Positions 11,627 through 47,490 of a stretch of 64,000 nucleotides of DNA are shown here, piece by piece. The stretch comes from Mytilus galloprovincialis. Taxonomy: Eukaryota; Mollusca; Bivalvia; Mytilida; Mytilidae. Each line of letters opens with the position of its first letter. Position 1 is the first letter of the stretch. Both the position numbers and the translations under genes were made by a program. The notes beneath the pieces are model-generated. The model saw nothing but the letters and a program-made list of their open reading frames with translations, was not told where the DNA came from and made no database searches. The stretch spans positions 65,253,261 to 65,317,260 of the forward strand of contig NC_134845.1 of the NCBI RefSeq assembly GCF_965363235.1. The letters are read 5' to 3'.

Positions 11627-14026
11627 ATTCAACAGAATTTATGCAAATCAACAATACCACCAGGACTTTGTGGACAACCAACTGAATCAAAAATTATCAT
11701 CAATGGCATTGAAACTTCATCTCTTCTAGATACAGGGTCCACTGTTTCAACAATAGCTCATGAATTTTACACTCAGCACTTTACTGACACACCACTCAAA
11801 CCTTTAGAACAGATTATCAGCATTGAATGTGCAGATGGAAATTCATTGCCGTACCATGGATATATTGAGGCCAACATTCAACTGAAAGAAACCGATCAGC
11901 ATTTTCCAACAATACTACTTGTCGTACCAGATAGTCCGTATCACTCCAAAGTTCCAGTTCTGTTGGGAACAAATATACTGACAACCATCATGGATAATTA
12001 CAAAGATAGATTTGGCAACCGATTTCTTCAAACTTCAGATTTAACAACACCCTGGTATTCTTCATTTAGATGTATACTATTGAGAGAGAAAGAACTTAGA
12101 AAGATGAACAACAGATTAGCATTAATTAAATCAGCTGAATATGAAAGAGTCATTATACCACCAAACAGTCAGATATCCATCAAAGCCATGACAACCAAAG
12201 AACTACCTTACCACTCCACATCTGCTATCACGCAGCAAACAAAGTCATCTATATTACCATCAGATTTAGATATTGAACCATCACTGATAGATTATAAATA
12301 CCAGCATAATGACATGTTCAACCTCAGAATTTGTAACATCACTACAAGAACAGTCACCATTCAACCAAACGCCATAATTGCTGAACTACAACCTGTACTC
12401 ATACAAGATAAGCCTTTAAATAAAGAGAAAGAATTTGAACCACCATTATTACAGCAGGTAGACATATCCAACGACAACATAACATCAGATCAACTTCAAC
12501 GTGGAAAAGATTTCATTACATCATACCAGGATATATTTTCCAAAGATGATTACGACATTGGACATACCAACATAGTACAACATAAGATACTCTTAGAAGA
12601 TGATAGACCGTTCAAACAACGATACCGACACATACCGCCTTCAATGTATGAAGATGTTAAGAGCCACTTATACCAGATGCTCCGAGCAGGAATAATTAGA
12701 AAGTCTCATAGTCCGTATGCCTCCAACGTTGTTCTAGTTAAGAAGAAGAATGGCACACTAAGAATATGCGTAGATTACAGAGAATTGAATTTAAAGACAA
12801 AAAAGGACGCCTATGCTTTGCCAAGAATGGAGGATATGTTAGACTGCATGGCTGGAAACAAGTACTTCTCGACCGTAGACATGAAGTCTGGTTATCATCA
12901 GGTGGAGATACTTGAGGAACACAAGGAGAGGACAGCATTCACCGTAGGACCTCTTGGACTCTTCGAGTACAACCGTATGCCTTTCGGACTTGCTTGCGCC
13001 CCCGCCACTTATCAACGTCTTATGCAAGATTGTCTCAGAGATCTTCACATGCGTATATGTTGCGTATTCATAGACGATGTCATCATATTTGCTAAAACGT
13101 ACGAGGAACACCTAGAGCGACTTGAGATGGTCTTTGACAGATTTCGACAAGCCAACTTGAAGCTTTCGCCATCAAAATGTTCTTTCTTCCAGCCAAAAGT
13201 CAAATATGTAGGACATATTGTATCTGAGGAGGGAGTAGAGACAGACCCAGAGAAAGTTGAGAAAGTAATGAATTGGCCTACTCCAAAGTCACCTGAAGAA
13301 GTACGTAGATTCATCGGATTCGTAGGTTACTACCGCAAGTTCATCCGTAACTTCAGTCAGATAGCAAAGCCACTTACATCCATCATGCCAACTTCAAATA
13401 TAAAGAAAGGAAAAAAAAAGACTAAGAAACAACAACAAGAAGCATTTCAGTGGACTGATAAGCAAGAAACAGCTTTCACAACATTAAAGCAACACTTATC
13501 ATCAGCACCGATACTTGGATATGTCGATTACTCCAAACCATTTGAACTACACACCGATGCCAGTGGTCAAGGACTTGGTGCCGTACTATATCAAGAGCAA
13601 GACGGACATCAACGTGTAATCGCATATGCTAGCAGAGGTTTAACAAAAGCGGAACAGAACTATCCAGCACATAAGATGGAATTTCTTGCGCTAAAGTGGT
13701 CCATAACCGACAAGTTCCATGATTACCTCTATGGCCACAAGTTTAGAGTACTCACAGACAACAACCCACTCACATATGTACTCACGTCTGCAAAACTAGA
13801 TGCTACTGGACACCGTTGGCTCGCTGCACTAGCCGCTTACGATTTCGACATCATCTATCGTCCAGGCAAGACCAATGCAGATGCAGATGGACTATCCAGA
13901 TTGACAACTACACTACAAAAGTCCAAAAGTCTGAAAAGACCAGTTTTTGTCTCGATTTGCATGAACTTTTACTCGACAATCTCAAAAAGAATGAATTATG
14001 TCTTAATTTTTCTTGACAAATTCTGA
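11609..14026 (+). CDS. pol: Pol, 5' part: protease-RT-RNase H, cut by the CACTA insertion
   Basis: Only 11609-13910 (767 codons) is retrotransposon sequence; the last ~38 codons are read from the CACTA left end, then a stop. The shown start is the first Met, but translation probably enters by frameshift upstream. The aspartic protease has LLDTGST with D41. The reverse transcriptase (about 330-510) has VDYRELN, the ...STVDMKSGYHQVEI block and the catalytic FIDD box at 487-490. RNase H has HTDASGQGLGAVLY (D650) and TDNNPLTYVL, and ends with LSRL. No internal stops or frameshifts are seen. Integrase lies 31.6 kb downstream in the matching frame, so this half cannot make complete Pol. Confidence 0.95.
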   Translation: MNIQSPIQQNLCKSTIPPGLCGQPTESKIIINGIETSSLLDTGSTVSTIAHEFYTQHFTDTPLKPLEQIISIECADGNSLPYHGYIEANIQLKETDQHFPTILLVVPDSPYHSKVPVLLGTNILTTIMDNYKDRFGNRFLQTSDLTTPWYSSFRCILLREKELRKMNNRLALIKSAEYERVIIPPNSQISIKAMTTKELPYHSTSAITQQTKSSILPSDLDIEPSLIDYKYQHNDMFNLRICNITTRTVTIQPNAIIAELQPVLIQDKPLNKEKEFEPPLLQQVDISNDNITSDQLQRGKDFITSYQDIFSKDDYDIGHTNIVQHKILLEDDRPFKQRYRHIPPSMYEDVKSHLYQMLRAGIIRKSHSPYASNVVLVKKKNGTLRICVDYRELNLKTKKDAYALPRMEDMLDCMAGNKYFSTVDMKSGYHQVEILEEHKERTAFTVGPLGLFEYNRMPFGLACAPATYQRLMQDCLRDLHMRICCVFIDDVIIFAKTYEEHLERLEMVFDRFRQANLKLSPSKCSFFQPKVKYVGHIVSEEGVETDPEKVEKVMNWPTPKSPEEVRRFIGFVGYYRKFIRNFSQIAKPLTSIMPTSNIKKGKKKTKKQQQEAFQWTDKQETAFTTLKQHLSSAPILGYVDYSKPFELHTDASGQGLGAVLYQEQDGHQRVIAYASRGLTKAEQNYPAHKMEFLALKWSITDKFHDYLYGHKFRVLTDNNPLTYVLTSAKLDATGHRWLAALAAYDFDIIYRPGKTNADADGLSRLTTTLQKSKSLKRPVFVSICMNFYSTISKRMNYVLIFLDKF
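13911..13983 (+). repeat. CACTA left terminal inverted repeat
   Basis: Seventy-three bases match the reverse complement of 45439-45511 except at positions 11 (G versus T) and 69 (A versus T). It starts CACTACAAAA and contains TCTCGATTTGCATGAAC before the first CTCGACA motif. Confidence 0.96.
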
Positions 14027-14039
14027 CTTGTATTAAATA

Positions 14040-14335
14040 AGTATGAAATTTACTCGACATATTCTCGACATTCTGAATAATTTCTAAAAAATTCTTGACA
14101 AATTCTCGACATTTGAATACTGTCTTAAAATTTCTCGACAGATTCTCGACATTCTTTTTTTTCCTCATTATTTCTCGACGGATTCTCGATATTCTTTTTT
14201 TTTTCTCATTATGTCTCGACGGATTCTCGACATTCTTTTTTTTCCTCATTATGTCTCGACACATTCTTAACATTTTGAATTGTGTCTTAATTTTTCTTGA
14301 TATATTCTTGACATGCTAAAATCTGTCTTGAATGT
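14040..14335 (+). repeat. Left subterminal array, ~41-bp period
   Basis: ATTCTCGACATTCT-type motifs recur at about 14060, 14101, 14142, 14182, 14223 and 14264, spaced 40-41 bases, with a second CTCGAC between most of them. The reverse complement of the right-hand unit aligns with these units, so the two ends carry one repeat family in inverted orientation. In maize En/Spm such subterminal motifs bind TnpA; that role here is inferred. The 121-aa minus and 74-aa plus open frames across this stretch are repeat artefacts. Confidence 0.88.
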
Positions 14336-15594
14336 ACTTAACACTAGGTCAAACTAGTTTTCCAATTGTTAAGTTAGAGTTATTCCCCTTAATGAATTAA
14401 AGCAGATTATTTTTTCTTTGGAAGTGTAAGTGTAGATAGTAATATGTAAATCTATATAAACATTTTTTCTGCATTTGTTAATCCTTCGTATAATAAATAA
14501 AACAAAACTCTAGGTATAAGTTTAGTTGCTAGCAATAACATTTCTCTTTTCTAGCTAGCAATTTTAATCATGTTAATAACATTATAAATAAACATATATA
14601 TTATAACAACAATATTCAAACAAAACAAATTACAAAATGTCCAATACATTATTTAAATGGACTGAAGTCATATTTGATATTGTAAATCATACATTCTGTG
14701 AAAAAATAATATAACATAACTGAACCCCACCTTTTGAACCGCCAAAGTACGTCTTTGCATATTTTACCTATATATATCTTTTTCCCAAAACAAGAACCTA
14801 TTATACAACTTCTCTCACTAACCATTTTTGAACTTATAAATACTACTAGTATAACAATAACACAGGGAAAACCCAAAGTCTCGACAAAAAGAAATTTAAT
14901 TTTTTCCTGCAAGATGACAAACAGTAAAGTGACAATTCAACATTCAAAACATATTTGCCTGTTAACAATAAAAATACAAGACAACTAAGTTCAACAATAA
15001 ACAAAGTATTTTTTGTGTTTCTTATCTCCTTAATTTAACATGTTGAAGGGTATTTTCTACTCAGTGTAAAAATAACCAGCTTTTTACAATACTATTACAA
15101 ATTGATTTAATATAAATAAAGGGACTGAAAAAGCAGAAAACAAATAATTGGTCTGTGTGCATTTTTTCAAGATAAATACATGTATTGAAAATTTGTCAGA
15201 AAATAAATATTGTGTTCAACTTTCCTACACTTAACATTGGCACATTTTTTCTTTCAAAACCCATGAAAATATAACCAAAATTTCTATAGTTTTGTAAACA
15301 TGACATTTTTAACTCTACGTGATACATTTAAGGGAAAAAAGTCGGAGTTAGTGTGCAAAATTTTTAAATGGTAGTTCATGGATAAACTTAAAACAAAGCT
15401 ATAGGATTCCCAATTACTGGCAAGTTTTTTAAGATAGAAGAGAAGAGAACAGTCTTAAATGAATTAAATATATTTTTATTCAATGAGTATTTTATATTAT
15501 ATATCTTAATTGAAACCTGAAATATTTACATAAATATATACAAAAAAACAATCAGCTAGCTTAACCTATAATCAAAACTGTTAACTTATAGATA
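14336..15594. other. CACTA spacer, no gene seen
   Basis: AT-rich sequence between the left array and the 3' end of the minus-strand gene. The final part may be its 3' UTR: on the minus strand an AATAAA signal is at 15475-15480. Short open frames near 14650-14990 lack support. Confidence 0.55.
15475..15480 (-). terminator. Candidate poly(A) signal of the minus-strand CACTA gene
   Basis: The plus-strand TTTATT reads AATAAA on the minus strand, about 340 bases beyond the stop codon at 15821. Other AT-rich alternatives exist, so this is a candidate only. Confidence 0.35.
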
Positions 15595-15597
15595 TAG

Positions 15598-15715
15598 GAA
15601 GATGTGGTGTGAGTGTCAATGAGACAACTCTCCATCCAAATAACAATTTAAAAAAGTAAACAATTATTAGTCAATGAAAAGCCTTCAACACGAAGCCTCG
15701 GTTCATAAAGGGCCC
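15598..15715 (-). repeat. Dispersed mussel-type repeat copy
   Basis: GATGTGGTGTGAGTGTCAATGAGACAACTCTCC followed by GCCTTCAACACGAAGCCTCGGTTCATAAAGGGCCC is the reverse orientation of the family described at 17968. It would lie in the 3' UTR of the minus-strand gene. Confidence 0.75.
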
Positions 15716-15820
15716 TTAAATTACTAGTAAATTTTGATAAAATCTGAAAATAAAATTTCAATGACAATAAGATAACATATTTCAAAAGTCAAACTTTACA
15801 TGTTTTTACAAAATTGTCTA

Positions 15821-16373
15821 CTAAAAAAGACTATTTAGTTTTTTCTTTATTGTCTGCATTAGCTGACCCTCTACTAGATCTACTTTGCCCAAGCAATGAA
15901 AGACACTGTTCTTATGAATACTGTCTTTGTAAAGTTTACCACTACCCAACTTCCATGTTGAAAGCTTAGGCCCAGCTTTTTTTAGGTAGGTAATGTCGAC
16001 TCTTGAGGTCCATATCTTTTCCACAGTTGCAAAGTCATAAGTCTTGCCGCCACTTGCAATGCAGACATTGTCTCCTACTTTAAAATGAACTCCTAAACTG
16101 TTTGTTTGTGGAAGCTGTTCTGGGGTATGAGAAGAGACTGACAAAGCAGGAGAAATCATTGGAGGTTGAGTGGGTGAAGTTTGTGGAGAATTTGATGGAG
16201 TAGATACCGGAGACACAGCAGGAGAAGATATGGGTGATGTTGTTGCGGAACTCACAATTGAAATATTCCTTTGTTTGAAGGATGCCCTGGCTTGTTTTGG
16301 TGGTATTACTGCCTCTCTGGCTTTCTTCCACTGCAATTTTCTAACACTACCGCCAGTTGCTATGGCTAACTCT
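15821..16373 (-). CDS. Minus-strand CACTA gene, exon 4 (last)
   Basis: The acceptor TTTATTTCAG precedes AGAGTTAGCC. Entering in phase 2 from exon 3, the frame runs 183 codons to TAG at 15823-15821. It encodes a basic lead-in, the Ser/Pro linker and the C-terminal ~90-residue domain. A leucine codon (TTG) at 16336 is not the start, because the frame is open upstream to the splice site. Confidence 0.82.
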
Positions 16374-19300: not shown

Positions 19301-22300
19301 ATAAGTGATAAATTGTCAGAAGTGATGTTGTAATATTAAAAATTTGCGACAATCTTATCATTTTCTTGCAATAAATTGAAAAAACTTCATGAGACTTTCT
19401 ATGAATTATTACTTAAACTCTTATATCAGTTTTAAAATTGAGAAAGAAAATGGGGAATGTGTCGAAGCGACAACAACCTAACCATAGAGCAGACAACAGT
19501 TTTGTATAATATGAGATTTAAATCTAATGAGTAATTATGACGTATGAAAGTTTTTACTCCAATTTTATGGTTCACTGACCTGACCCCTATTTCTGTTTAC
19601 AGTTATATATATAGTCATTGTGCTGTCAGTTTATTTTTGATATATGAGTTTGGATATCCCTTTGGTACCTTTCCCCTCTCTATTCAGGTGCAGATCCAGC
19701 TATTTTTTTGCTCCCAGGGGGGTCGAAAACCAAGAAATATGTCTGGGCCTTTTATAGCGGACTATGTGTGTGGGCTTTGCCCATTGTTGAAGGCCATACA
19801 GTGAACTGTAGATGTTAATTTCTGTGTCATTTGGTCCTTTTGAGAGTTGTCTCATTGGCAATCATACCACACCTTCTTTTTTTCTATTAAGGGGGCTTGC
19901 AAGTCTAAATAATTATTTTTTTTCAATCAAAGGATTTCACTATTTTTCTATAAATAAATTATCCTGTTCTTAATGGAAATAAATAAATAAAAATATGGGG
20001 TCACTGTTTATTTCAGCTCACAATCTACCTTTGAAAGCAGCATGCATTTTTTTTAGGTACTTTAAATACAGAAATTATTGTGAGGTTTTTATTATTGCGA
20101 TTAATGCGACAGAGTTGTAAACGTAATAATTAAAACTCACTTTTTGTAATATTTTAACTGAATAAAGCATGACTTATCTCAAAATCGTAAAAATCAAAAT
20201 CACATTTAAGTTTATAATGACAAAATCGCAATCATACACGCGCAATAATTTCTGAATTTACAGTACTTTTCTGTTGAACTAATAGGAGAAAAAAAGGGTA
20301 AAATTGAAACAAAAAAAGAATCAAACTACAGAAATGGTTTAAATCTTACAATATTAAGTTTAAGATCAGTTCATTTGAAAAAAATATAGGTCACTAATGA
20401 GGTAAAAAAGTTATTTTAATTTCTATGCAAAATAATGGCATTTTTTACCAACGAGGGAGCTTTTTTAATTATCTAAAAATTTTAAAAGTCATCTGGGGCC
20501 AAAACAACTGTTTTAAAGTAACAATTAATTTTAGATGTAATAAATGAAATGTTTAATGAAAAAACAAATGTTTCAATTTTTGCAGATTTTTTTGTACCGT
20601 TGCATGAGCCTCCTTAAGAACAAATTCCTAAACTGAATAATGAATATGTCATAAAAAGACAATATTTAAAGATCTTGCTTTTATATATTTAAATTATACA
20701 ATCTTCTGTCATTTTTGTCATTTAAGCATTTTGAAATAAATATGTTCACTGCAATTATTTTCATTTTTTTCTGTGACTTTAAGTCCTTAGACTTCTTCCT
20801 GCTTACCTAAAAGTCACATAGTAACATTTGAGTTTCCTTGATAAATTTTGAATCTTATTTTGAATCTTTTTAATTTTATTTCAAATTAACTATTAGGAGA
20901 TGCTCATACAATTTTACCAAAAAACCTGTTGAAAAAAAGTCACAGGACATAAAGTCACAAATTTGGTAGGACAAAAAGTCACAGGACAAAAAGTCACAAA
21001 TTATTTGTTGACAATTGTTTGAATATATAAGAGAAATATCTTGAAATATTTACTTTTTAACACATAAATGCATATTAAAGTTTAGGAAATGAGTCATTAA
21101 AAAAAATGAGTCTTGAAAAATCAAGATTTATTTAATTTTAATCATGCAAAAGATATATTTCTTGGCATCATGAAGCCAATTAAGGGCAAAGCCATTTTGA
21201 CATTTTGTTTTTTTTAACAATTATTTGATCATCTTTGATATTTTTTGGATAAATTTTGTTAACAAAGTTGGTTTATTTACAATAGTTCAAGAAAAATACA
21301 AAAATATTTTTCTAGAAATAAGCAGTTTTTATTCAAAGAAAATAATCAGAAAAAATGAATTGTGACTTTTAGTCCTGTGACTTTTTGTCCGTGACTTTTT
21401 GTCTGTGACTTTTTGTCCTGTGACTTTCTGTCCTACATTCGTATATTACACCTATTTATTCATAATCATAATGAAATGTATTCCTATTCTTCATTATTAA
21501 CAAAAGCTAGGAGTAAATTTTTATCAACGAGTTCAATACTTTACAAATAGCGTACAAGGTTAAGCTGAAAAAAAGTTGTTTTTTTTTGTATGTGGAAAGA
21601 AAATTTCAGGTGTATTAATTTTCTCTGACCCAATACATTTGTAGTTTCATATCTTCATGCCGTAGGCAAACATTATCCATTTGAACCATAATCTTTATAA
21701 AAAAACTTAGTATTGTTTAAAGTTTTCAAGAAATAAAATTAATTCATGGGCCAAACAATTTTATTTCAAATATCATTCATTAAGTTATAATTCAAAATTA
21801 AGTGAAACCTTAATGGCATGTAAAGAATAAACAGATTTATTTAAAACTAAGAAAAATTTCTCCTTAAATACAAAATATCAAAGTACCCTATCATTAAGTG
21901 TTTTAAGCATTTAAAATAGTGATCCTCAGTATAATAATAATGATAGTCCCAGAAGTGTAATATGCATTAAAAGAAAGGCTTTATTATTTTTTCATAATTT
22001 CATCATAATTTTTCCAATTCATTTTATTTTACTTTAATTACAATTTAATTCACTCGTTTGTAATTTTCACACCTTTAAATGATCAGTGTACAATTGATGA
22101 AGGTAAGAGTTTAATCTTATCATTTTGATCTTAATTTACATCCACAACCTTGACATCTTTATTGCACAATATATTAGATCTTTAAATTTTTTCACACCTT
22201 TCGTGTATTACCTATAGTTAAAACTTTTTGCAAAATAAATTTTATTACTTCATCAACCTGATCAAAGGTAAATATTTTTTTAATCCTTTGATTGATGTTT

Positions 22301-25300
22301 TTTTATCAAATCATGAAACAGCATCATTTTACTTTTACCTATGTTTAAAAACTCATTGGCCAATCAGAAAGTCTTAAACACAAACATAAGCAATGCCATA
22401 TAAATATAACTTCAATTATTTAATTGAAATCCATATCTCATAATCCTGTCAGTGCATAAATGTTGTTAATCTTGTTTCTTGTATTAAACTATGGGTGTTG
22501 CAGTTCCTTTCAAATATGGTGAGTAGACTTAATTTTTTTAACTCATACTTGAATATAATTATACTGATTATTATATACACAGCAGAGACAAAACTAAATA
22601 GATTTTGATGTTAATTTATGGTTAAAAAATTAAACGATTAGTGAGATACCTTTGAAAAGGCTTTTAAAATATCTAAAGAATAAATAGGGTCACAGTTAAG
22701 GCTATTATACAAACAGCAAGATACACAAGTAAATTCCTTCAGAAAATGCCCTCTTTCAGAGTCGCTTCCCCTCAAAATGCATTTTCAAACAAAAAACATT
22801 GTGCTATATATATTATAATAATCCTTAAAAACTTGTAAAAATATGAATATACGAGTTAAAACTTTGGCAATTTTTCTTCTAAATGAAAATTCACATTTAA
22901 TTATCTTGAATTCTTGACATACTATGTATCAGTGTATGAAACAAACAGAAATACAATTTATTTCATCTTGATCATAATATAAGTTTTTTCATATTTAAAT
23001 TGCAGTCACCCCCACAAGTGTCAAATATCAGGAAAATGAGTTCCATATATCATATCAATATTTTTAGTCTTTTTTTTCTGCAATAATGTTTCCAAATTTA
23101 TAGTATAAATTTTCTATTTAAGATTTTTCAAATTTCACTTTTGTACATATTTGTAAAGAATCAAAATTAAGTTCTTTCATATTTAAAAGCAGATGTGGTA
23201 TGATTCATTATTACCAATGTGACAATTCTCCAGAAGAGACCAAATGACACTTAACTAAATAATCACTGTACAGTCTACTACAATGAGCAAAGCCCATATT
23301 GCATAGACGGCTATAAAAGGCCCAGAATTGACAAACTTGTGTAAGTTACAGCATGTACAATTCAGTTTTATTTCATGGATTTAAAATATTTAAATATTCA
23401 AAGTTTTAAGTGCATGGTATCAGAACTGAAAATATATATATATTTGAAGGTCATAATACTGCCTGTTTTACCTAAATAGCTTATAATTTCTTCAATTACA
23501 ATTCAAAAAGTATTTAAAATTAGCAGGTCATTTAAATAAATATCAACACATAAACAAATAAAACATTTTTAGATATTAATTTGTATAAATGGGGCTTAAT
23601 GCTAAATTGAAGTATTTGATTATTGTTGAAGGCTAGGCAATGTCAGTCACAGTCACCTTCCCTATAAGAACAATTCTAATTGATAAATTTCTCATTATCA
23701 TGGCTTGTCCTGAATATGTATATGAACTACCACTGATTGTTTAAAGCTAATCCATAATTTGACCCCTATTGGATAACTTTAAAACTTAAATTATACTTTT
23801 TTAAATGCTAGAAAATGGGGGAAAAACAATAATAAATTTATATATTTATGATTGCTGAATGTTAAGATTTTCTGATTATGGTTTATTCAGGCTGATCATC
23901 ATCTTTTCAACTTTAAATGTGTTCTTTCTGTTGATATACAATGTACAAATTGTAGTATGCTTCTGAATGGTAGTTTTGATCATGCTAAATTAGTACCAGA
24001 CTAATACAGTATAATAGTATGTTACTTTCTTTCATTGAACACTCTCTATAACGAATGCATAGACCATTATCAATCATACTGATAACTTATTAGTTTGAAA
24101 ATATCACTTCTAAATGTATGAGAGAATATTTCTGATATGATAAGACTTGTTTTACTTTCTAATAGAAATAAATAATATTAAGATCACATCTGACAATATC
24201 TAATCCAACATTCTTTTGATTATAAATGTCTTTAATACAAATTTCCCTTTTTAAAATATTGGTTAGAATTTAGTTTAGAAAATAAAAGTACTTTTTTTTT
24301 AGAACAGACCCTTAATTTTTTATATTTTTTCAAAGTATGATAGTATTACTACATCTATCATGTCTATACTAGAATGCAATATTACTTTTATTATGTTCAA
24401 CTGATACTCTTAATTAAAGGTCTAGTAAAATATAAAATACATAATTGTCTTACCTGTAATAGCTTAAAGGCAGTTGTCTTTGGTTTGAAGTAGTCTTCAG
24501 TAGTCATGTTGAGAACTAAAATATCAGTCTGTGTACCAACACTTTCTTTGGTCAGATTACAGGCACACACTAGTCCAAAAGCCATTTGTACAGCACAGCA
24601 CTTGCATCTTAGATCACATTTTGGTGGCTGATCTCCTCTGTCAGATTGTGTATTAAAGTTCTGTAGTGTGGCCATAGTTATGTCTTGAGAGGAAGGATTC
24701 AGCATCTGAAAATTAAATAAGAAATTTGCAATGTAAATTAAATCACTTTTGTATGCATAATAAAATATTGAAACATGATAATAATTTCAGTGAACTCTTA
24801 AAAGATTCAGTAAATTAAGACTTGAGCATAGACATCCTTTTTGATAGACTATTTTATTATCTCAGTCATAGCAATTATTTGAGTATTTTGCCTTTGTAAT
24901 AGAACAATAATAATTAACTAAGAAATTGTTATTTGCCAAAGATGCGGAAAATGTACAGAAATATCAGTCAAGAGTACTACATACATGTACAAGTTACTTT
25001 TATTTTATTTATTTAAAGAATTTATTAGTAAGATACATGTACTTTTAAAAATATACATACAACTTTGATACAAGTGTATTTTATTTAATTTTTCTAATAT
25101 ATTATTTTATTGGCTAATTTAGTTACATGTATGTACCATAGACATTAAATTTTTTAACTTATACAAGTAAAAAAAGTCAAACTATCTAAATTTCTTTGAG
25201 ATTTTTTTATCAAACATGAGTGTCTGTCCTTTACCATATGTTTACAGATGTCATTATTCAACATGTATGTTTAATTTTATCGACAATGAAATTTGAATCT

Positions 25301-31398: not shown

Positions 31399-31429
<31 letters not shown>

Positions 31430-35201: not shown

Positions 35202-35430
35202 AGCTCACCTGGCCCGAAGGGCCAAGTGAGCTTTTCTCATCACCCGGCGTCCGGCGTCGTCCGGCGTCGTCGTCCAGCGTCCGGCGTCGTTAACTTTTAC
35301 AAAAATCTTCTCCTCTGAAACTGCTTGGCCAAATTAAACCAAACTTGGCCACAATCATCATTGGGGTATCTAGTTTAAAAATTGTGTCCGGTGTAAAAAG
35401 TGAAAATTCTTTGTATCAGACCATACTGTC
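35202..35430. repeat. GC-rich dispersed repeat with AGCTCACCTGGCCC hairpin
   Basis: The start is a tight hairpin, AGCTCACCTGGCCC / GAA / GGGCCAAGTGAGCT, with one mismatch. It is followed by iterated CCGGCGTCGTC units and CTTCTCCTCTGAAACTGCTT. The CpG-rich start stands out from AT-rich surroundings. It is a dispersed repeat type I associate with bivalve genomes; not a gene. Confidence 0.65.
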
Positions 35431-36131: not shown

Positions 36132-36588
36132 GGTCCGAGTACACAGTTATCGTCCTTTGATTTTCGTTGTCCACGAATATAGTCCTTATTGTGGACAGTG
36201 TGTTACTTGTCAATTTTTGTTATACCCCTTCCAAATTTATTTCTCCATGTTTTATGCCTCATATAGCAAGTTGGGGGATGAATTGACACTGTAAAAAAAT
36301 TTGGGTCATAAATATTAATGTAAAGTAGTGATAAGGTTCAGCTGAAAAGGTCACAAATTAGCACTTCGGAAGCTGTCAAAACATTTCAAGTCCCCTTAAC
36401 ATAAAATTGTCCATATTTTGAGTAAGAGCTGATGAAGTTTTCTATAATTTTGATATAATTTGTCCCAAAAGTAGTACAGCACACTGTAAAAATATTATTT
36501 AGAAAGCGCAGGTGGGATTTTTTTAATTTTTAATTTTTTATTTATTGTCCATAAGAAATGCACTACGAAATAACTGTGTACTCGGACC
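36132..36588. repeat. MITE with GGTCCGAGTACACAGTTAT ends
   Basis: Nineteen-base perfect inverted ends (36132-36150 and 36570-36588) enclose ~420 bases of non-coding sequence. A diverged relative starts around 30458 (GGTCCAAGGACACAGTTATC, then TTTTCGTTGTCTACGAATAT) and shares internal blocks such as the GGGGGATG stretch. No target duplication is clear. Confidence 0.75.
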
Positions 36589-37079
36589 ACTTGACATGTT
36601 GAAAAATTCAATAAATGGTAAAAAAATGAATTACAAAAATCTAGGTAAATTAGCTTGATAAAAGATATGAAAACACCTTTAGAGTTGTTTGTTATACTTT
36701 AAAGACCGCTAAAAAATCAAGAATCAATACATTCTGATGAATAGAAGCGGAAAAATTAACATTTTGTATCAATTTTTATTGATATTTCTACCATTTTTGT
36801 AAGAGTTTTTTAAGTCTTCCTTGAGTAAAATTTATGGGAATTTTTCTGTGTATATTTGGGGTATAATACTAAAGATTAAAAGTTCTAATCTTCTGTTGCA
36901 ATTACTTTCAGGTTTGGGTCAAATTTATGCTAGATTTACTGGACTAAATTGTTATTTTTGATCGGGTTGTTGTCACCTGGACACATTTTCCATTTAAATT
37001 CTCTATTTTATTCTCAAGTCATTTGCATGATCCATATACCACTGCAGTAGTTACAGTCATTTTTTTTCTCTATTGCAGG

Positions 37080-38864
37080 ATGACATCATCAACATCTTTG
37101 TCATATGAAGTATACAGCCATACCATCACCTTAATGGATAACTTGAAGAGACAATGCACATGTTCAAAGTGTAATGGAAAATTTGTCAACATTAAGACTT
37201 TCCGAGCTCATTCAAAGAAAATTCATAACACCCATGCTGAAATATCAGACACTCATAGAGAACAACCTGAGATTGTAAGAGAGTCTAAGGAACTTTTAAA
37301 AAAAACTTTAATTTTAAATCAGTCACTCCATGAAGGAACTAATAGAACTGTAAAAGATGCCATAGCCGAACATTTATTCATATTTTCATCTAATAACGGA
37401 ATGTCAAAGACAGCTTTGTCACAGTATCTTCACCACGAAAAGTGTGTTCTACCACAACCAAACAATCTGCCATCCACTTATTGTGAAGCTGTCACTATTA
37501 TTCAACCATACCTGATGCCAATAGAAAAATTTAAATGCTGTACAAATGACTGTAAAATTTTTCCTATCAGCAGTACCATTCTTGCCTGTCCAGACTGTAA
37601 TGAAAGTTTGGTGTTTTCAAACAACAGGAACAAAAAAACATTCCAATATATGCCTATAGTACCACGCATAGTTCGTTGGTATGGAACTAGGAACCTGGCA
37701 AAGATTCTTTATGCCAACAAGCTTAACACAACTGGCAGGCTAAGCAGCTACACAGATGGCAATATATTTCGACAACAGATGACAGATGGAGTCTTCAAAG
37801 ATCAGCAACAGCAGAACTGTGTGCCATTGGCTCTTTTTGCTGATGGTGTGAATCCAAATAAGAACCAAACAGTCCAGAAGTCAATATGGCCTCTCATCAT
37901 CACCTGGATAACACTCCCACAAGAAATGCGATATATTTTAGGACCAATGATGTTGGCAGGTATTGTTCCAGGCTATGGTAGAAAAGAACCAAAATCACTG
38001 GACCCTTATATTAACGTTTTAGTTGACGAACTTTTATCAAACATTGAATGTAACTTGTATGACGCCTACACAGATGCACCAGTAAATGTAAAGATTGCTT
38101 TATTACAGTATTTATGTGATATACCAGCTTTTTCTAAACTTTTACACTGTTCTGGTCAAGCAGCTATTCGTGCTTGTTTTTTCTGCAAAGATACAGGTGT
38201 CCATAGCAGTTCCGTGAATAAAGTATTGCACATATCAAACAGAGAGTTTTTACCCACAGATTCGCCATTTCGGAAAGACAAGACATTATTTGCCAAGAAA
38301 ACTGAAGAGGTTGCTCCCAAACCACAAGCATATTCAAGGGAAGAAGAAATGGAAATAAGAAAAGAATATGACAAAAAAAAAAACAATAACCAAAAATGTA
38401 AACTACAAAAAGAAACTGGATTTAAAGGGATACATCCACTTCATCGCCTACCATATTTTGACAGGGTGCATCAGATGCAACCAGATGGCATGCACACATT
38501 AGCAGATGTCATCAGCAACATTCTTGATCTGATAACAGGCAAATCTGATGGACCTAAAGTTCGCCAGTGCGAAAAAGATTATAATCGATTTAAAGAAACC
38601 TGGCCAAAAAGACCATCATTATCAACAACCGAATGTGAGAGACCATCCAAACAGGCAAAGAAATCATCTGTAGATACAGCTGTTCCTGAACCAACACCAA
38701 AAGCGCCTCCTTTACCAGCAGCTCCTTGGTTACTAACAAAACAGGATGTTAAATTAGCTGACAACAGAGCAAAGAGTGTTAAATACCCTAAAGGCTTTGA
38801 TTATACTCCTGCTGACCATTTTACCAGAGCATGGACACTGCGTACAATGCATGGCAAACAACAG
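37080..38864 (+). CDS. Transposase exon 1 (coding)
   Basis: It carries 595 codons from ATGACATC to the CAG before donor GTATTG. It holds the zinc finger, Cys cluster, Tnp2 core and a Lys/Pro-rich stretch (about 515-560). The longer open frame from 37023 reads through the upstream intron and is not a true start. Confidence 0.9.
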
Positions 38865-41800
38865 GTATTGATTATAAAAATATTTTATTTAATGAATTAG
38901 ATATGAATACTGTAAGTTCAGAAATTGTTGCTTGCATTTATTATTGCACCTTTTTTGGGGGACTAAAATGCAATTTAGATTTTAGCAATATTTAGAAAAA
39001 TCCCTGTTTAATTCATATATATACAAAATTTCCAAAATGCAAGGTTAAGGTGGTACCTGATACTACAGGGAGATAACTCTTTTAAATCGACGAAACATTT
39101 TAGAGTGTTGTGTTGTTAAAGGAATATTGAGCTTCTCAATGATCAAAATTAGTGTTTGTCAAAGCAACCATTCAGGGGAGGGAATAATAACTCATAATTA
39201 ATAATAATTTTAGATAATATTATAATTATTTGAAAGCTGGAAAAAAAGTATAACTTTTGTTTATTTCTGATATATATATATATATACTGAAAGTATGCCC
39301 TATATATCTAGTAATATATATCATTTCATCCAAATGCTTTGAATCTTTGTATTTTAACAAAATGCAGTTACCATGCACAAATGCTATGAAATATTCAATA
39401 AAGTGATCTAAAAAAAATGATTAACTTGAAGATAGAATTTAAAGGAAACCAATTACAAATATGTCAAGTTCCCTAAACTGAGAATTATTGAAAATATCAA
39501 TTATGACAATTATAAATGTCATTAAAGATAAAAAAACTATTTTGAACTTTTGATAAAAGTCAAATGTGTAAATATTGTATTGGGTTTATTAAAGTACAGT
39601 TAATTCAGTCATGACAGATACTTGTATGATATAAGTATTTTTTTTTTAGAACATTTGTTAATTCAAACTCAAATAATAGTGAATATTCTCCTTTTATTCA
39701 TATTTATATAGAAAAATACTTTATTTCAGTTCGTAACCAAGAATATTGCAGCATGGTGTATCAGAGGCCTCCTAGCAAAGCCACAAGAAGAAACCTTATT
39801 CAATTTATTTGAAGTGATCAAAAGACTGACACAACCATCCTACACAACTGAGCAGCTTCAAGGACTTATTGAAGACACAAGTACAGCATTGGTATTACTT
39901 GAAAGGGATTTTCCTTTGACCTTGCAGGTTAGTTTATCTACTTAGATGTATGAGTTCTATATTCATCCGTATTTGCAATTGAAAGAATCAAGTAAACAAT
40001 AATAATCTACTTTATCATTTTAATTATCTCACACAATTTACAGCAGGAGGCTTACAGTTAATATCCGTACACCCCTGATCAACCAAAATAAAGTTAATTC
40101 TTATAAGATTTCAAAACATTTTGTTGATGCCTCTCCTAGGAAATGTAAATGATAAAAAAACAACGAATTGAAACAAGATATTTTGTTTATTGATTAAAAA
40201 AGGCATGATTGTTTTAACCATTTAAATTAATTTAACAGTTTATAAAAAAAATTCTGCACATAATTAAAGATTGCTTACTACTACATGTACTAGCTGCTAA
40301 GGTAGATGGAGTTTTATTTACAGCCTTAATTGTAATTGTTCAATCAGATTGTAGATTTTTGCTTCATAAGAATTAGTATATTTTTATGATCTAATTTTCC
40401 AAAAGTATGCTTAGAGAGCTGAATAAAACAAATAATATCAGGCACTATTTATTTTAAGTACTTGGGGTGCTATCAACAGTTTTTTCTATGATGTCATATT
40501 TTGAGGGACCATGCATAAGTGACCCTTAGTGGTGGACTGATTTATAAAGATACCTGTATAAAACTAGATATCACTGGAATCAGAATGTTCTCTAGCTTCT
40601 TATAACCTTGATAGAAAGTGTACTTTTATCATATTAAAAAAGAAGCCTAATTTGAACATAAAAAACCTGAAATCAGGTTATGTTCATACCCATACAGACG
40701 TGCACATTTTATATAATCAAAACTGTATGAAATTTATAGGTTTTAACCAGGCCTTTGAAAAGTACGGTCTCCTGCTCCGAAAACAGCTTCAGTGGCTGCA
40801 AATATGTTTTAATTTTTCACTGCCTAAAAACAGGATGTTTACAGTGTTGTCTGCCTTCAAAACATGTATATTTAATATAATTTTAAAAATTATTTCAATA
40901 TTCAACCTTTTTTAATTGAAAGCTAATTACTTTAGCATTAATTGAGTAAATAAACAGGGGTTTCCCTCCATGGTTATTTTTAGTCAGGGAATAACCCCTG
41001 TTGTTTATATGAAACTGTTTATAGCACCCTTATAAATGTATACATAATTTAAAAAAAAACAATTAAAGGGCAGATAAATTGCGGAATGATATAAAAATGC
41101 AACGTAAGAAGATGTCACATAATTTCAAAAAGCCAACTCTCTCAGTGACCAATTAATGGACTTTCAGTCTGTGCCAAACTGTTTTAGGGTTTGTCTGACC
41201 GAAAGAGAAATCTGGGTTTTTGTACATATATATTCAAACAAAATATTTCAAAATTTCTGTCTGTCCGAATGATTTTTTATCTGCCATTTTGTCGTTCAGA
41301 CAGAGTTTGGGATACCCTTGACTTTGATGTTAATAATTAAACATGATGCTTGTTGAAATATCAATTAAAATAAGCACATTCAATTATTTCCCTTGCAATA
41401 ATTTCCTTCACACACATCCTGGAGTTGTGTATAGCTGATTTGTTAAGTTTCATCAGTAACATCATAACAGACAGACACTAAACGAGTGTCAGTACTGTAG
41501 TCAGAATTAAGGTTTATATAATTTTCTTTTCAGATGTAGTACTATATAATACCGAATGAATTTATAATTTTTCATTTGTTTAAAATATTTTTATTTGTAG
41601 AATATCACAACACACCTGCTACATCATATCCCAGAGGGTTATGAAGACTATGGACCATTGTATGATAGATGGCTTTATCCTTTGGAACGAGCAAACAGTT
41701 GGGTGACCAGACAAATTTTACAACATGGACATGAAGAATCAACAGTGATGCAGACATACCGGGTAAGTTAAAACAGAATTGAATAACATAAAAAAGAAGA

Positions 41801-43369
41801 TGTGGTATGATTGCCAATGAGACAACTGTCCACCAGAGACGAAAACATTAAAAACTATAAATCACCGTATGACCTTCAATAATGAGCCACAACGAGCAGA
41901 CCACAACATCTTATATATAGATGATAGTTTATAAAATGAAGGCGTTTTGAGTTGCATCAAATTTTCATTTTGGGATTAAAAATGTATTGAGAAAGATGAA
42001 TAATACTATGAAAACAATATGTGCAGAGTTATCGTCCTTGGACTTTGAAAATTCACTCAAATCATTACTTTCTACCTTTTTTTTTATCTTCTTTAAGATA
42101 TTGACTTGATATTTGTTTGTACTTTACACCTTGACAAGTGATAGTCAAAGCATTTTGTTGCAGTGTAATGAAATTTTATAAGTAGGGATCTATGTTTTGC
42201 CTTACAATACGCTCAAAATACTTGGTGAAATTTGAATCAAGGTTCATATTAGCAAGTTATATTGTGTGTTGCATTTTCATAATTATCACTAAAATTAAAC
42301 CATTAAAGACCAAAGAACGGTTTTCCACAAAAAACCTTAGCTCATACCAAACAACTTCTACTAAGGGCCCCAAAAAATGACTAGTGTAAAACCATTAAAA
42401 TAGGAAAACAACAGTCTAATTTTTATAAAAAACGAGAAATGAAAAGAAAAATGAACCACATCAACAAACGACAACAACTGAACACCAGGTACCTTATTTA
42501 AGACAGTTGTAAACAAATGCTTCAGGTTTAAAAGTCAACACATATGTTTTTAGTCTAACACAAGACAGACATGATTTATATGGTTGTCGCATTTTTCTTG
42601 AGATTCTGCATATGAGGGTTCACATGAGCACCCTATATGTGATGGTTTTCAGCATTTAACATTATCTATATACAATTTACTGATTTGGCTTTCAAGAGTT
42701 AAGGAATACAGCCTTGTTAAGATACAATTTATCACATCTCATTCACTTACTCTAGTATGCATAAATTAATTTCCTTAATTCATATTTCAGATATACGATT
42801 GGAGCTCTCACAATATTTTGAGTGGTGAAATTATAAATTACAGCAGACAAACAAGTCTGTGTCGCTTGGCAGAAAAAGTAAACTCCATTCACCATCAAGA
42901 TATATCTACAGCATCTACGAAAAGATTCATATTGCAAAGTGAGGATCTATCAATTCTAAAAGACAATTACAATAATATATATGACCAAAATTATGAGTTA
43001 TTTGACATAGACCCAGTGGTCACATATCTAAAGTTCAGCCAAAGACAGGATGCCGAGTTAAAAAGACAAATTTTCTTCTCAACAACAGAGCATCAGACGA
43101 CAGCATCACGCTCACATGACTATTGTGTTAGTGTTTCGCATAGGACAAACCGTCGCTTTGGCACAATTTCTAAGATTTTCAAACACAACCATCTAGATAA
43201 AGCTACCATGTGGGTAAAATTGGAGATGTTTCCCATTCCGGAACAATCTGGACTATTCTTGGTCACCGATGACAGAAAGATTGACACACATATATTTAGC
43301 TTTGATAAAATAAGCAATCCAGTTGTATTTGCTTCAGAAGACAATAAAATATGGTTTTTAAATGTTTAG
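37080..43369 (+). CDS. CACTA transposase (Tnp2 type), 907 aa, 4 coding exons
   Basis: Exons are 37080-38864, 39730-39927, 41601-41762 and 42791-43369, all phase 0 with GT...AG introns. The protein should bind and cut the element ends. A C2H2 finger (C28-x2-C31-x12-H44-x4-H49) is followed by a Cys cluster (C153-C173, ACPDC). The Tnp2 core has LFADGVNPNKN (D255), SIWPLIITWITLP, PGYGRKEPKSLDPYINVLVDEL, CFFC (366-369) and DRVHQMQPDGMHTLADVI (D469). Exon 3 has YDRWLYPLERANSWVTRQ, resembling the DUF4218 block downstream of Tnp2. No stops or frameshifts are seen. The start Met lies one base after an acceptor (CTCTATTGCAG), so a 5' UTR intron is likely. Confidence 0.9.
38865..39729 (+). other. Transposase intron 1
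   Basis: GTATTG to TTTCAG. It begins with an end like that of the MITE at 20058 (TACTGTAAGTTCAGAAATTG at 38909) and contains a short TA run near 39275. No coding content. Confidence 0.8.
39730..39927 (+). CDS. Transposase exon 2 (coding)
   Basis: Sixty-six codons in phase 0 (FVTKNIAAWCIRGLL...DFPLTLQ) between TTATTTCAG and GTTAGT. A single open frame joins exons 1 and 3 without adjustment. Confidence 0.87.
39928..41600 (+). other. Transposase intron 2
   Basis: GTTAGT to TTTGTAG, about 1.7 kb, AT-rich. The 87-aa open frame at 40652-40915 lies entirely inside and has no support. Confidence 0.75.
41601..41762 (+). CDS. Transposase exon 3 (coding)
   Basis: Fifty-four codons (NITTHLLHHIPEGYEDYGPL...QTYR), phase 0, ending at consensus GTAAGT. 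It carries the aromatic/Arg block YDRWLYPLER that makes the family assignment firmer. Confidence 0.87.
41796..41905 (-). repeat. Dispersed mussel-type repeat, partial copy
   Basis: GATGTGGTATGATTGCCAAT, GAGACAACTGTCC and GACCTTCAATAATGAGCC, in reverse orientation, 34 bases into transposase intron 3. Confidence 0.82.
42791..43369 (+). CDS. Transposase exon 4 (last)
   Basis: The acceptor CATATTTCAG is followed by 192 codons to TAG at 43367-43369. The first codons ATATACGATTGG (IYDW) precede the first ATG-like codon, so this is an internal frame and not a separate gene. The C-terminal part has no motif I can name. Confidence 0.87.
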   Translation: MYDWSSHNILSGEIINYSRQTSLCRLAEKVNSIHHQDISTASTKRFILQSEDLSILKDNYNNIYDQNYELFDIDPVVTYLKFSQRQDAELKRQIFFSTTEHQTTASRSHDYCVSVSHRTNRRFGTISKIFKHNHLDKATMWVKLEMFPIPEQSGLFLVTDDRKIDTHIFSFDKISNPVVFASEDNKIWFLNV

Positions 43370-44982
43370 GTATGCATTTATACATGTACATGTATTTTGT
43401 ATGAAGTAGATAAATAGTTTATATACTTGGAAAGGTACATTGTTATGTATTTTCTTGCTGTATATAGAACGAGTTGTTCAAAAGAAAAAAAGAAATGGAT
43501 AAAAAGAGATTTTTTAAATGGAAGTCAACTTTGCTTTTTTCTATGAGATATTCCTTTCAAAGGGTGTATTACGTTTCCAACATTTTTTTGCATTACTTTT
43601 CCAAAATAATAGTTGCACCTTAACGCATTTACCTGTATTTCACCTGTAAAAAATGGTATTAATAATATATAAGACTTAATATTATTATAGTATTTCTTAG
43701 TAATTTGTAATTAATGAGTTCCTTCAATAGGTAGATAATTATTGCATTATCCAAAATATTTAAACAAATACCATACATTTTGTGTTTTAGAGACATTTTT
43801 TTTCAACTGAGCCATTTAAGGGGAGATAACTCTTTTAGTAAAAAAAAGTTACTGGTCTGATTGGGATTTTTTTAAAATTTTACTTGTATCAAGAAAGCAG
43901 TTCAGTGACACCACTTTTTCTTTTTTTTTCTTTATACATATTATAAAACCTATCTTCTCACAATTTCTTTCAATGAAAGTTCTATCTCATAGATTTTTTT
44001 TGCACAAAAATGTGTTTTTGCATGATCCTACAATTTTTCAATGACTCATAGTTTTAAAAATAGCACAGAGGCCCATTCTTTCTATTATATTTTTTAAAAG
44101 AGCATATAAAAATCTTCAATTTAGCAAAGTATAAAAAAAATGAATCTCAGGAAACTTACATATGATCTGCCTTAACATTGTGAGTACTTTTTAAAAGTTA
44201 TCATGTAGAAAGTGGACCCATATTTGATGAATTCAGTTTTTTGTTATATCTTTTATATAAATTTGCATATGTTTGATTTATTTTTTGGACACTCAATTTT
44301 ATGTCCTGATTTGGTTTCGGTCAGTAATATCAATTTAAAAAGCAATGAGGATAACGACTTCTATAAAAATTCAGAAACGTAGTGTCAAAACATTTAAAAT
44401 GTGGAAACCAAAACACACATTTTACATCCTACTTTTTTTTGTAATTGAAAAAAAAAAAGTTCCGAGCTTTCAAATTACAACCATTGTACAGGATATTTAT
44501 TCTGCTTTATTTCTCTTTCTAGAATTTACTGTTCTTTTTCAAGTTACACTTAAATTATTACTACTGAAACAAAATTTTGGCAATTAAATATTTTGTATTA
44601 AAATGTTTATATGTAAATATTTTGATAAGAACATAAATTAATATTGGTATGAAAATGTTACAAATACAAATGTGAGTATGGTTAAATATAAACCTATTTA
44701 AATATGGGTTACAAATGTTAATTTATACATATGATAAATAAGTGCTTAATGATTGAAATCACTCATACTGTAGACCTATTTCATTTTACATGCATAATAT
44801 TCAATGTTTATATGGCTAATAAACAATTATTGACCAAATTGTTGTTTTTATAATTTGCATTGTGATATTGTATTCTAATTCTTTTAGTCTAGTTAAGCCA
44901 TAATAGAAATGAAAACAAATCAGCTCAAAAAAGTGTTTATGACTGTAAGACTGCGTCGATACACAATTCAGATGAAATTTAT
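43370..44982 (+). other. Transposase 3' UTR and spacer
   Basis: AT-rich and non-coding. A good poly(A) signal at 44818 suggests a ~1.45-kb 3' UTR ending just before the right subterminal array. The 80-aa open frame at 44345-44587 has no support. Confidence 0.6.
44818..44823 (+). terminator. Candidate poly(A) signal of the transposase gene
   Basis: AATAAA is followed within 20 bases by a T/GT-rich stretch (TTGTTGTTTTTA), the usual downstream element. It lies ~165 bases before the 41-bp array. Confidence 0.5.
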
Positions 44983-44987
44983 AGTTG

Positions 44988-45265
44988 AGAATGTGTCTAG
45001 ACATATTAAGACATCATTAAGAATGTCGAGATTGTGTCGAGACATATTCATACATCATTAAGAATGTCGAGAATGTGTCGAGACATATTCATACATCATT
45101 AAGAATGTCGAGAATGTGTCGAGACATATTCAGACATCATTAAGAATGTCGAGAATGTGTCGAGACATATTCAGACATCATTAAGAATGTCGAGAATGTG
45201 TCGAGACATATTCAGACATCATTAAGAATGTCGAGAATATGTCAAGACTTATCGAGACAAATTCA
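44988..45265 (+). repeat. Right subterminal array, 41-bp unit x 6
   Basis: AGAATGTCGAG starts at 45020, 45061, 45102, 45143, 45184 and 45225, an exact 41-base period with few substitutions. Each unit has two GTCGAGA-type motifs. The reverse complement aligns with the left array. Looser GTCGAGA copies continue to 45440, into the inverted repeat. Confidence 0.95.
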
Positions 45266-45438
45266 AGACAGTCGAGAATAGGTCAAGACAAATCAAGACA
45301 CATTTTAGACTGTCGAGAAAGTGTCGAGAAAAATCGAGAAACAATACAGATAGTCGAGAACAATGTCGAGAATATAAATACATATTTCAGACAAATTAAG
45401 ACTTTGTCGAGAATTTTTACAAAAATTTCATACAAAAC

Positions 45439-45511
45439 GAGAATGTCGAGTAAAAGTTCATGCAAATCGAGACAAAAACTGGTCTTTTCAGACTTTTGGA
45501 ATTTTGTAGTG
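45439..45511 (-). repeat. CACTA right terminal inverted repeat
   Basis: The inverted partner of 13911-13983, ending TTTTGTAGTG. The base after it begins the second CTA target copy. Confidence 0.96.
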
Positions 45512-47490
45512 CTATCAGCAAAGATTCCATTAAAGCGATATGCGGATGCATATATACACCATTGATTGACTCCTATGCCATATCACCAGATACCATCGAC
45601 ATTAGTAATTTGGATATGCACATAGAGGTTTCAACTGATACCAACTGGTCAGAAGTCCAAGCTATGGATCCACTACTCCACGCATGGAGAAAACAGCTGA
45701 AATCTGGACAGAAACCAGTAAAAGGAAAGATATTATCAAGTCCACTAAGTAAACAGTTTAACCATCTCAGACTTATAGATGATGTGCTTTACAGAGAGAT
45801 TACCATCGACGAAAAGATACATCATCAACTCATCATACCATCTTCACACATCAAATTAGCATTAGAAGCACTACATGACGAAATGGGACATCCAGGGAAA
45901 GACAGAACCACCAGTCTAATAAGAGAACGTTTTTACTGGCCTGGGATGAATAAAGATATTGAAGAATGGATTCAACGATGCGAAAGATGTATTAAGAGAA
46001 AGAAAGATCCAGGAAGAGCACCACTAGTCAACATCACAACAACTCAGCCAATGGACCTTATATGCATTGACTACCTTACTCTAGAACCATCAAAGGGAGG
46101 AATTCAAGACATCTTGGTAATCACCGACCACTTTACACGTTATGCACAGGCCATACCAACACGCAACCAGACTGCAAAGACAACTGCAGAAGCATTGCTC
46201 AACAACTTCATCGTGCATTATGGTTTACCTAACAGAATTCACTCAGATCAGGGTCCATCCTTTGAAAGTAACATCATTCAGGAACTTTGCCGTCTAACAG
46301 GGATAAAGAAGTCAAGAACCACACCATACCATCCGATGGGCAACGGCATGACTGAGAGGTTTAACCGTACATTACTGTCAATGCTTGGGACTTTACAGCC
46401 AAAAGATAAGATCAACTGGAAAGTGTACGTAGCTCCGTTAGTGCATGCGTACAACTGCACTCGTCATGAAGCAACAGGGCAATCACCTTACTTTCTGATG
46501 TTTGGCCGACAACCAAAGCTTCCCATCGATTTAGCATTTGGACTGGTAAAGGACAAAGATAGGAAACCACACACCAAGTACATACAAGAATTGAAGAACA
46601 GACTAGTGGATGCCTACAAGCTTGCTTCCGAATCAGCAAAGAAAGCGCATGAGAAACAAAAAGAACATTACGATCTGAAAGTTAGAGGAGCAGTGGTGGA
46701 AAAAGGCGACAAGGTATTAGTGAAGAAAGTTGCATTTGATGGAAAGCATAAGCTGAGTGATAAATGGGAGAACGATATTTATTTAGTATTATCACAACCT
46801 AATAAAGACATACCAGTGTACGTTGTACAAAAAGATAGTGGCGAGGGGCGTAAGCGTACATTACATAGGAATCTTCTATTACCTGTGGGATATATTTCAA
46901 GTCAACCACCAACGGCAGAACCATTACCTAGACCAGTCCCTAGACCAAGAACGAGATTGCAAAAGAAGATCAGCTCTAACACAGACTGTACTATGGAGGA
47001 TACCGATATCGAAAGTGATGATGATTATGAGATATTCGTACATCAACGACCAATGGTTGACAACACTTCATCCAGTGTTGATGATGATGAAACAGATAGT
47101 CTTGATGATCACGAAGAAGTACTACACACTCCGGAGTCAGATGGGGACGCCCATGATATAGATATAGAGGTACAGGAACTAGATTCCTTACACGAGGATG
47201 AAGAGCAGGAGCCGTCTTTAGAACCAGAGACGCTAGATCCAGCTCATGATGATGATATACCTCCAGTTGTGCCTCGTCGATCAGGCCGAGAGAGGACGCA
47301 ACCTAAGTGGTTACAGTCTGGTGATTTTGTGACGAAGTCTGCAGTTCCACCTATTGATACACCTGTATTGCCACCAGCTGAGTGGAGACAGAAGGCAGAT
47401 TACCTGTCTAGCTGTATTGCTAGAGGTTTATTTTCAGGGATAGAGCTAGAAGCAGGGAAGGCTTTATTAGCCATTTTGACCGATCATTGA
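45460..47490 (+). CDS. pol: Pol, 3' part: integrase, cut by the CACTA insertion
   Basis: The first ~18 codons come from the CACTA right end; retrotransposon sequence resumes at 45512-45515. An HHCC zinc domain (LHDEMGHPG...CERC) precedes the catalytic core with D204 (CIDYL), D263 (HSDQGPS) and E299 (GMTERFN). The D-35-E spacing is canonical. A C-terminal region (KGDKVLVKK...DKWENDIYLV) resembles the chromatin/DNA-binding tail of Gypsy integrases. A long acidic Asp/Glu stretch (about 510-600) and PRRSGRERTQPKWL follow. The frame matches the upstream pol half. On its own this half lacks a native start. Confidence 0.95.
   Translation: MQIETKTGLFRLLEFCSAISKDSIKAICGCIYTPLIDSYAISPDTIDISNLDMHIEVSTDTNWSEVQAMDPLLHAWRKQLKSGQKPVKGKILSSPLSKQFNHLRLIDDVLYREITIDEKIHHQLIIPSSHIKLALEALHDEMGHPGKDRTTSLIRERFYWPGMNKDIEEWIQRCERCIKRKKDPGRAPLVNITTTQPMDLICIDYLTLEPSKGGIQDILVITDHFTRYAQAIPTRNQTAKTTAEALLNNFIVHYGLPNRIHSDQGPSFESNIIQELCRLTGIKKSRTTPYHPMGNGMTERFNRTLLSMLGTLQPKDKINWKVYVAPLVHAYNCTRHEATGQSPYFLMFGRQPKLPIDLAFGLVKDKDRKPHTKYIQELKNRLVDAYKLASESAKKAHEKQKEHYDLKVRGAVVEKGDKVLVKKVAFDGKHKLSDKWENDIYLVLSQPNKDIPVYVVQKDSGEGRKRTLHRNLLLPVGYISSQPPTAEPLPRPVPRPRTRLQKKISSNTDCTMEDTDIESDDDYEIFVHQRPMVDNTSSSVDDDETDSLDDHEEVLHTPESDGDAHDIDIEVQELDSLHEDEEQEPSLEPETLDPAHDDDIPPVVPRRSGRERTQPKWLQSGDFVTKSAVPPIDTPVLPPAEWRQKADYLSSCIARGLFSGIELEAGKALLAILTDH

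What the first reader, a model, noticed from the sequence alone, without database searches (positions are those of the whole stretch)
13908..45514. A complete 31.6-kb CACTA transposon nested in a Gypsy pol gene
The ends (CACTACAAAA...TTTTGTAGTG), 73-bp inverted repeats with two mismatches, and the CTA target duplication fix both boundaries to the base. The size is large for a CACTA element with both genes apparently intact. It splits pol between RNase H and integrase.
Basis: partly seen in the sequence, partly recalled or inferred. Interest (0 to 1): 0.9.

Follow-up and report, generated by a model that had tools for sequence, protein, structure and literature searches.

The report
Giant intact CACTA transposon in mussel
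A very large (31.6-kb) but otherwise standard cut-and-paste jumping gene with two apparently intact genes has landed inside a retrotransposon in a mussel genome, and near-identical copies of the whole unit and unoccupied landing sites elsewhere in that genome show that it moved as one piece.

Summary
Confirmed. Window 13911-45511 (31,601 bp) is one complete CACTA/EnSpm transposon: CACTACAAAA...TTTTGTAGTG ends, 73-bp inverted repeats with 2 mismatches, CTA target duplication. It splits a Gypsy pol between RNase H and integrase. Two other copies of that Gypsy, the two read, show the uninterrupted site with a single CTA. Two more copies of the whole unit lie on C5 (32.7 kb, TTA duplications) and C12 (about 35 kb, damaged ends), 99.4% and 99.2% identical to this one. 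The large size therefore belongs to the family, though about 0.5 kb at 20936-21440 is a window-specific insert. Both genes are mapped: a 4-exon, 907-aa Tnp2 transposase with the CACTA/RAG1 motif set and a RAG1-like predicted fold, and a 4-exon, 378-aa second gene of no known family. Coding sequence is 12% of the length. Among the three copies, only the window's has both genes open and both ends intact. Ordinary in kind, unusual in size. The second gene's role as a TnpA-like partner is inference.

The parts
13908..13910 (.). target-site duplication CTA, left copy
13911..13983 (+). left 73-bp terminal inverted repeat, starts CACTACAAAA
13992..14314 (+). left subterminal array, 40-41 bp units with TCTCGACA on the + strand (6 exact)
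15821..16373 (-). gene 2 exon 4 with stop codon
   Evidence: relatives P0043, P0052; splice sites and open frame; 3 near-identical copies in the genome
18388..18572 (-). gene 2 exon 3
24454..24705 (-). gene 2 exon 2 (Cys cluster, GTQTD motif)
33442..33588 (-). gene 2 exon 1 with ATG (inferred: no database protein aligns here; ATG, donor site and frame only)
20936..21440 (.). window-specific insert with inverted ends, absent from the C5 and C12 copies
37080..38864 (+). transposase exon 1 (Transposase_21/Tnp2 domain; D255, D347, C366, C369)
39730..39927 (+). transposase exon 2
41601..41762 (+). transposase exon 3 (H666, H670, E690)
42791..43369 (+). transposase exon 4 with stop codon (BAH-like domain in the model, weak)
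44943..45412 (-). right subterminal array, 41-bp units with TCTCGACA on the - strand (15 exact)
45439..45511 (-). right 73-bp terminal inverted repeat, ends TTTTGTAGTG
45512..45514 (.). target-site duplication CTA, right copy
6811..8015 (+). Gypsy 5' LTR, stretch identical to the 3' one
10392..11573 (+). Gypsy gag ORF (PNMA-like, zinc knuckle)
11552..13907 (+). Gypsy pol, left part (weak protease matches below the Pfam cut-off, RT, RNase H)
45515..47487 (+). Gypsy pol, right part (H2C2, integrase core)
47709..48913 (+). Gypsy 3' LTR, 0 differences from the 5' one in 1,205 bp

Best explanation
A complete, possibly still autonomous CACTA/EnSpm DNA transposon of Mytilus galloprovincialis, 31.6 kb long, that inserted as one unit into the pol gene of a Gypsy LTR retrotransposon. 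Shown: ends, inverted repeats, 3-bp duplication, unoccupied sites, two further copies of the whole unit, open frames with GT-AG introns for both genes. Inferred: the 907-aa Tnp2 protein is a DDE transposase of the CACTA-Transib-RAG1 group (D255, D347, probably E690; C366/C369 and H666/H670 as zinc ligands) that cuts beside the terminal CAC and moves the element by cut and paste with a 3-bp stagger. Inferred, less surely: the 378-aa second protein binds the TCTCGACA subterminal arrays and helps to pair the ends, the part that TNPA plays in maize Spm. Short copies with the same ends (1.1-2.2 kb in the cases read) would be moved in trans by the few large copies.
Against: No evidence of expression or of movement was obtainable. 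Two of three large copies are damaged: C12 has altered outer bases at both ends and lacks 523 bp and 42 bp near the right end, C5 has a 2-bp insertion in gene 2 exon 4. Constraint is only suggested: exon against spacer differences 13/3861 v 136/26499 (p 0.17), 11/3861 v 169/25616 (p 0.004), 10/3861 v 143/25468 (p 0.012), three pairs that are not independent; in the transposase synonymous/non-synonymous counts are 5/7, 4/5 and 1/8, which does not by itself show constraint. Gene 2 matches no family (best Pfam E 0.096 or worse outside a low-complexity Extensin_1 hit), so its function rests on position and analogy. E690 is chosen over E707 (14 of 14 rows) by recalled RAG1 spacing.
Confidence: 0.75

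Rival explanations
1. The mobile unit is a smaller CACTA element that was swollen in place by later insertions; 31.6 kb is not what moved.
For: A window-specific insert of about 0.5 kb at 20936-21440; dispersed mussel-type repeats in the introns; other copies have inserts of their own (203 bp, 607 bp, 938 bp, 3.8 kb).
Against: The C5 and C12 copies hold nearly all of the same interior, introns and spacer included, at 98.2-99.5% per aligned piece.
Confidence: 0.03
2. The nesting is an assembly join, or the three large copies are segmental duplications rather than transpositions.
For: No reads were available; C12 has no recognised duplication.
Against: Exact 3-bp duplication at the window locus with single-CTA sites in two other Gypsy copies; C5 has different flanks and its own TTA duplications; Gypsy flanks and LTR do not occur in the other loci read.
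Confidence: 0.02
3. Gene 2 is a passenger with no part in transposition; the Tnp2 protein alone would move the element.
For: No recognised domain; poor model, pLDDT 51; no relative outside Mytilus among named sources although transposase relatives reach oysters; frame broken in C5. SmTRC1 of Schistosoma is described with one transposase ORF (PMC1636069, passages).
Confidence: 0.2

Closest known systems
Large autonomous plant CACTA elements: soybean Tgmt* (20.5 kb, PMC2613891) and TgmR* (13 kb, PMC4219821), maize Spm/En
   Same: CACTA ends, 3-bp duplication, subterminal repeat arrays, Tnp2 transposase plus a second product, introns; short derivatives with the same ends.
   Different: Animal host; 31.6 kb; 73-bp inverted repeats against 13 bp in Tgmt*; two separate genes on opposite strands; second protein not related by any search made here.
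SmTRC1 of Schistosoma mansoni (animal CACTA, PMC1636069)
   Same: Animal CACTA with long inverted repeats (54 bp there, 73 here).
   Different: 4.5 kb with one main ORF there.
Enlarged En/Spm families of Chondrus crispus (16-20 kb, 4-5 ORFs; cited in PMC6431247, passage)
   Same: Unusually large CACTA.
   Different: There the size goes with extra ORFs; here with introns and spacer.
Transib transposons and RAG1/ProtoRAG
   Same: Terminal CAC; C(2)C and H(3-4)H between second D and E (PMC12730594, passages); best structural match over model residues 82-744.
   Different: 3-bp and not 5-bp duplications; Tnp2 sequence family; a C-terminal part that resembles BAH domains weakly.

Membership tests
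CACTA/EnSpm transposon | CACTA...TAGTG ends in inverted repeats | tested here: met
CACTA/EnSpm transposon | 3-bp target duplication | tested here: met
   CTA here with single-CTA unoccupied sites; TTA, TTA, ATA, TAG in four other copies
CACTA/EnSpm transposon | Tnp2-type (Transposase_21) transposase | tested here: met
   E 4e-22, 78.9 bits, cut-off 28.6
CACTA/EnSpm transposon | DDE with C(2)C and H(3-4)H between second D and E | tested here: met
   D255 37/39, D347 40/40, C366 and C369 40/40, H666 14/14, H670 15/15, E690 13/14 rows with a residue there; which E is catalytic is inferred
CACTA/EnSpm transposon | subterminal repeat arrays at both ends | tested here: met
Autonomous CACTA element | open genes with splice sites | tested here: met
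   both genes open in the window copy; transcripts not seen
Autonomous CACTA element | transposition activity | not testable with these tools
   needs an excision assay
Autonomous CACTA element | second protein that binds the subterminal repeats (TNPA-like) | not testable with these tools
   a second gene is present; binding unknown
Transib/RAG transposon | RAG1-like transposase fold | tested here: met
Transib/RAG transposon | 5-bp target duplication | tested here: not met
   3 bp; so it is not filed there
Gypsy LTR retrotransposon (the host element) | pol order RT, RNase H, integrase | tested here: met
Gypsy LTR retrotransposon (the host element) | TG...CA LTR ends and a flanking target duplication | tested here: inconclusive
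   the shared 1,205 bp start with GG and end with AT, and no equal 3-8 bp words flank them; exact LTR ends were not settled

The most novel reading that the evidence does not exclude
Probability: 0.12. Interest if true: 0.75.

Novelty: new member of a known kind. Interest (0 to 1): 0.45.

Why it matters
It documents an animal CACTA element that moved as a unit of over 31 kb, above the 4.5-20.5 kb of the elements in the papers seen (passages), with both genes mapped to the exon and unoccupied target sites as proof. A curated bivalve library (PMC10294476, passage) lists two CMC transposons, so elements of this length may escape routine annotation. Three large copies beside many short elements with the same ends are a clear natural case of few sources and many dependants, and give a defined pair of proteins for testing how CACTA enzymes, relatives of RAG1 in motifs and predicted fold, pair distant ends in animals.
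Full report
Observation. The ends are as described: CACTACAAAA at 13911, TTTTGTAGTG ending at 45511, each once on the + strand, CTA on both sides, 73-bp inverted repeats with 2 mismatches. The element is 31,601 bp without its duplications. Both subterminal regions hold arrays of 40-41 bp units; the 8-mer TCTCGACA occurs 22 times in the window against 0.51 expected: 6 at the left end on +, 15 at the right end on -, 1 inside.

Host. The nearest transposase in the protein collection is LOC143055256 of Mytilus galloprovincialis, 907 aa, on a contig of 81,349,889 bp. The window's own genome (1.385 Gb, 331 contigs) has a contig C12 of that length and a C5 of 102,992,780 bp, the contig length given for two more M. 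galloprovincialis proteins. The C12 copy encodes LOC143055256 letter for letter. The window is C8:65,253,261-65,317,260.

Target. The Gypsy has a gag ORF, RT and RNase H before the insertion and integrase after it, and two LTR stretches with 0 differences in 1,205 bp. The last 300 bp before the insertion gave 40 matches, 40 of 77 candidates being scored; the best others are on C6 (100%) and C13 (99%). I read 110 bp at each of these two. After the same base both go on with one CTA and then with the right flank: 0 and 1 mismatches of 50 on the left, 1 and 1 of 57 on the right. That is the unoccupied site; the insertion is exact. The reading phase of the two pol parts agrees across one CTA (coordinates only).

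Other copies. The left 101 bp gave 574 candidates, 40 scored, 40 matched, the window's own included. Five loci were read over 40 kb each. Two hold the full unit: C5, 32,716 bp, TTA/TTA, and C12, about 35 kb, with the two outermost bases changed at each end, 523 bp and 42 bp missing near the right end, and no duplication that I recognised. One, C8:62,682,819, matches only the left 1.5 kb, at 88-93%; two are elements of 1,877 and 2,224 bp with TTA and ATA duplications. A 1,139-bp element with TAG duplications is in L007. Window and C5 differ at 177 of 30,993 aligned sites, window and C12 at 236 of 30,503, C5 and C12 at 448 of 31,003; the last figure includes unrelated inserts at window 22446 that the aligner set against each other, and after filtering it is 153 of 29,329. 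An insert with inverted ends at 20936-21440 is in the window copy only. So the great length is a feature of the family.

Genes. Transposase: exons 37080-38864, 39730-39927, 41601-41762, 42791-43369, GT-AG introns, 907 aa, 5 residues from LOC143055256; open in 3 of 3 large copies. Its first exon has three near-identical places in the genome, then 76% over 466 bp and 65-67% over 1.2-1.5 kb (31 matches, 29 of 29 candidates scored). Gene 2, other strand: exons 33588-33442, 24705-24454, 18572-18388, 16373-15821, 378 aa; exon 1 is inferred. It is open in the window and C12; C5 has a 2-bp insertion early in exon 4. Exon 4 has three near-identical places, the same three loci. Coding sequence is 3,861 nt, 12% of the element; gene 2 has about 16.6 kb of intron. 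Of the three copies only the window's has both genes open and both ends intact.

Age and constraint. Zero differences in 1,205 bp bound the Gypsy insertion at about 0.0012 substitutions per site and lineage (95%, Poisson, my arithmetic), and the CACTA insertion is younger, unless the LTRs were evened out by conversion; no mussel rate was used. Exon against spacer differences: window-C5 13/3861 v 136/26499 (p 0.17), window-C12 11/3861 v 169/25616 (p 0.004), C5-C12 10/3861 v 143/25468 (p 0.012), not independent. Synonymous/non-synonymous: transposase 5/7, 4/5, 1/8; gene 2 1/0, 2/0, 1/0. This hints at conservation of the genes but does not prove it for the transposase.

Literature. Searches of CACTA with bivalve/transposon, Mytilus, metazoa, mollusc, and of EnSpm with Mytilus listed nothing that I recognised as this element; only open-licence papers are held, and Repbase was not searched. 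Seen as passages: PMC1636069, PMC2613891, PMC4219821, PMC4158355, PMC6431247, PMC8289069, PMC8905726, PMC10137854, PMC10294476, PMC11183127, PMC11373642, PMC12730594. EnSpm/CACTA as a class is known in bivalves: 0.08% of M. chilensis, 0.13-0.15% of Mercenaria, 8.2% of Ctenoides. A four-exon ancestral CACTA transposase was proposed from plants (PMC4158355); the mussel gene has four coding exons.

Verdict. It is a new, unusually large member of a known superfamily, with good proof of insertion as a unit. Whether it still moves, and what gene 2 does, is open.

Noticed in passing
window 6811-8015 and 47709-48913 with flanks: The Gypsy LTRs are identical over 1,205 bp, yet no equal 3-8 bp words flank them and the shared stretch starts with GG and ends with AT. 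This could mean recombination between copies, loss of a few terminal bases, or LTR ends that I did not settle.
   Followed up: partly
C12:22494047 and about C12:22529000 (L009, L012): The C12 copy has changed outermost bases at both ends although its transposase is the annotated LOC143055256. In ProtoRAG the first CAC is essential (PMC8289069, passage), so this copy may be a protein source that can no longer move.
   Followed up: partly
window 22446; C5 and C12 copies: At the same point where the window has nothing, C5 carries 607 bp and C12 3.8 kb; the two inserts show no similarity to each other. An insertion hot spot or repeated loss.
   Followed up: no
C5:18382087, C13:1874019, C6:33137301, C6:25807976, C6:25788050 (L033-L037): Five places with a second CACTA transposase family, 66-67% identical to exon 1 over about 1.2 kb, near-equal scores among themselves; LOC143075311 may belong to it.
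   Followed up: no
window 18130-19889, 32202-32257, 41790-41845, 15592-15647: A dispersed repeat with the core GTTGTCTCATTGGCAATCATACCACAT recurs in both orientations inside the element; I recall it as common in mussel DNA.
   Followed up: no
window 9962-10263: About eight 30-bp tandem units just upstream of the Gypsy gag ORF.
   Followed up: no
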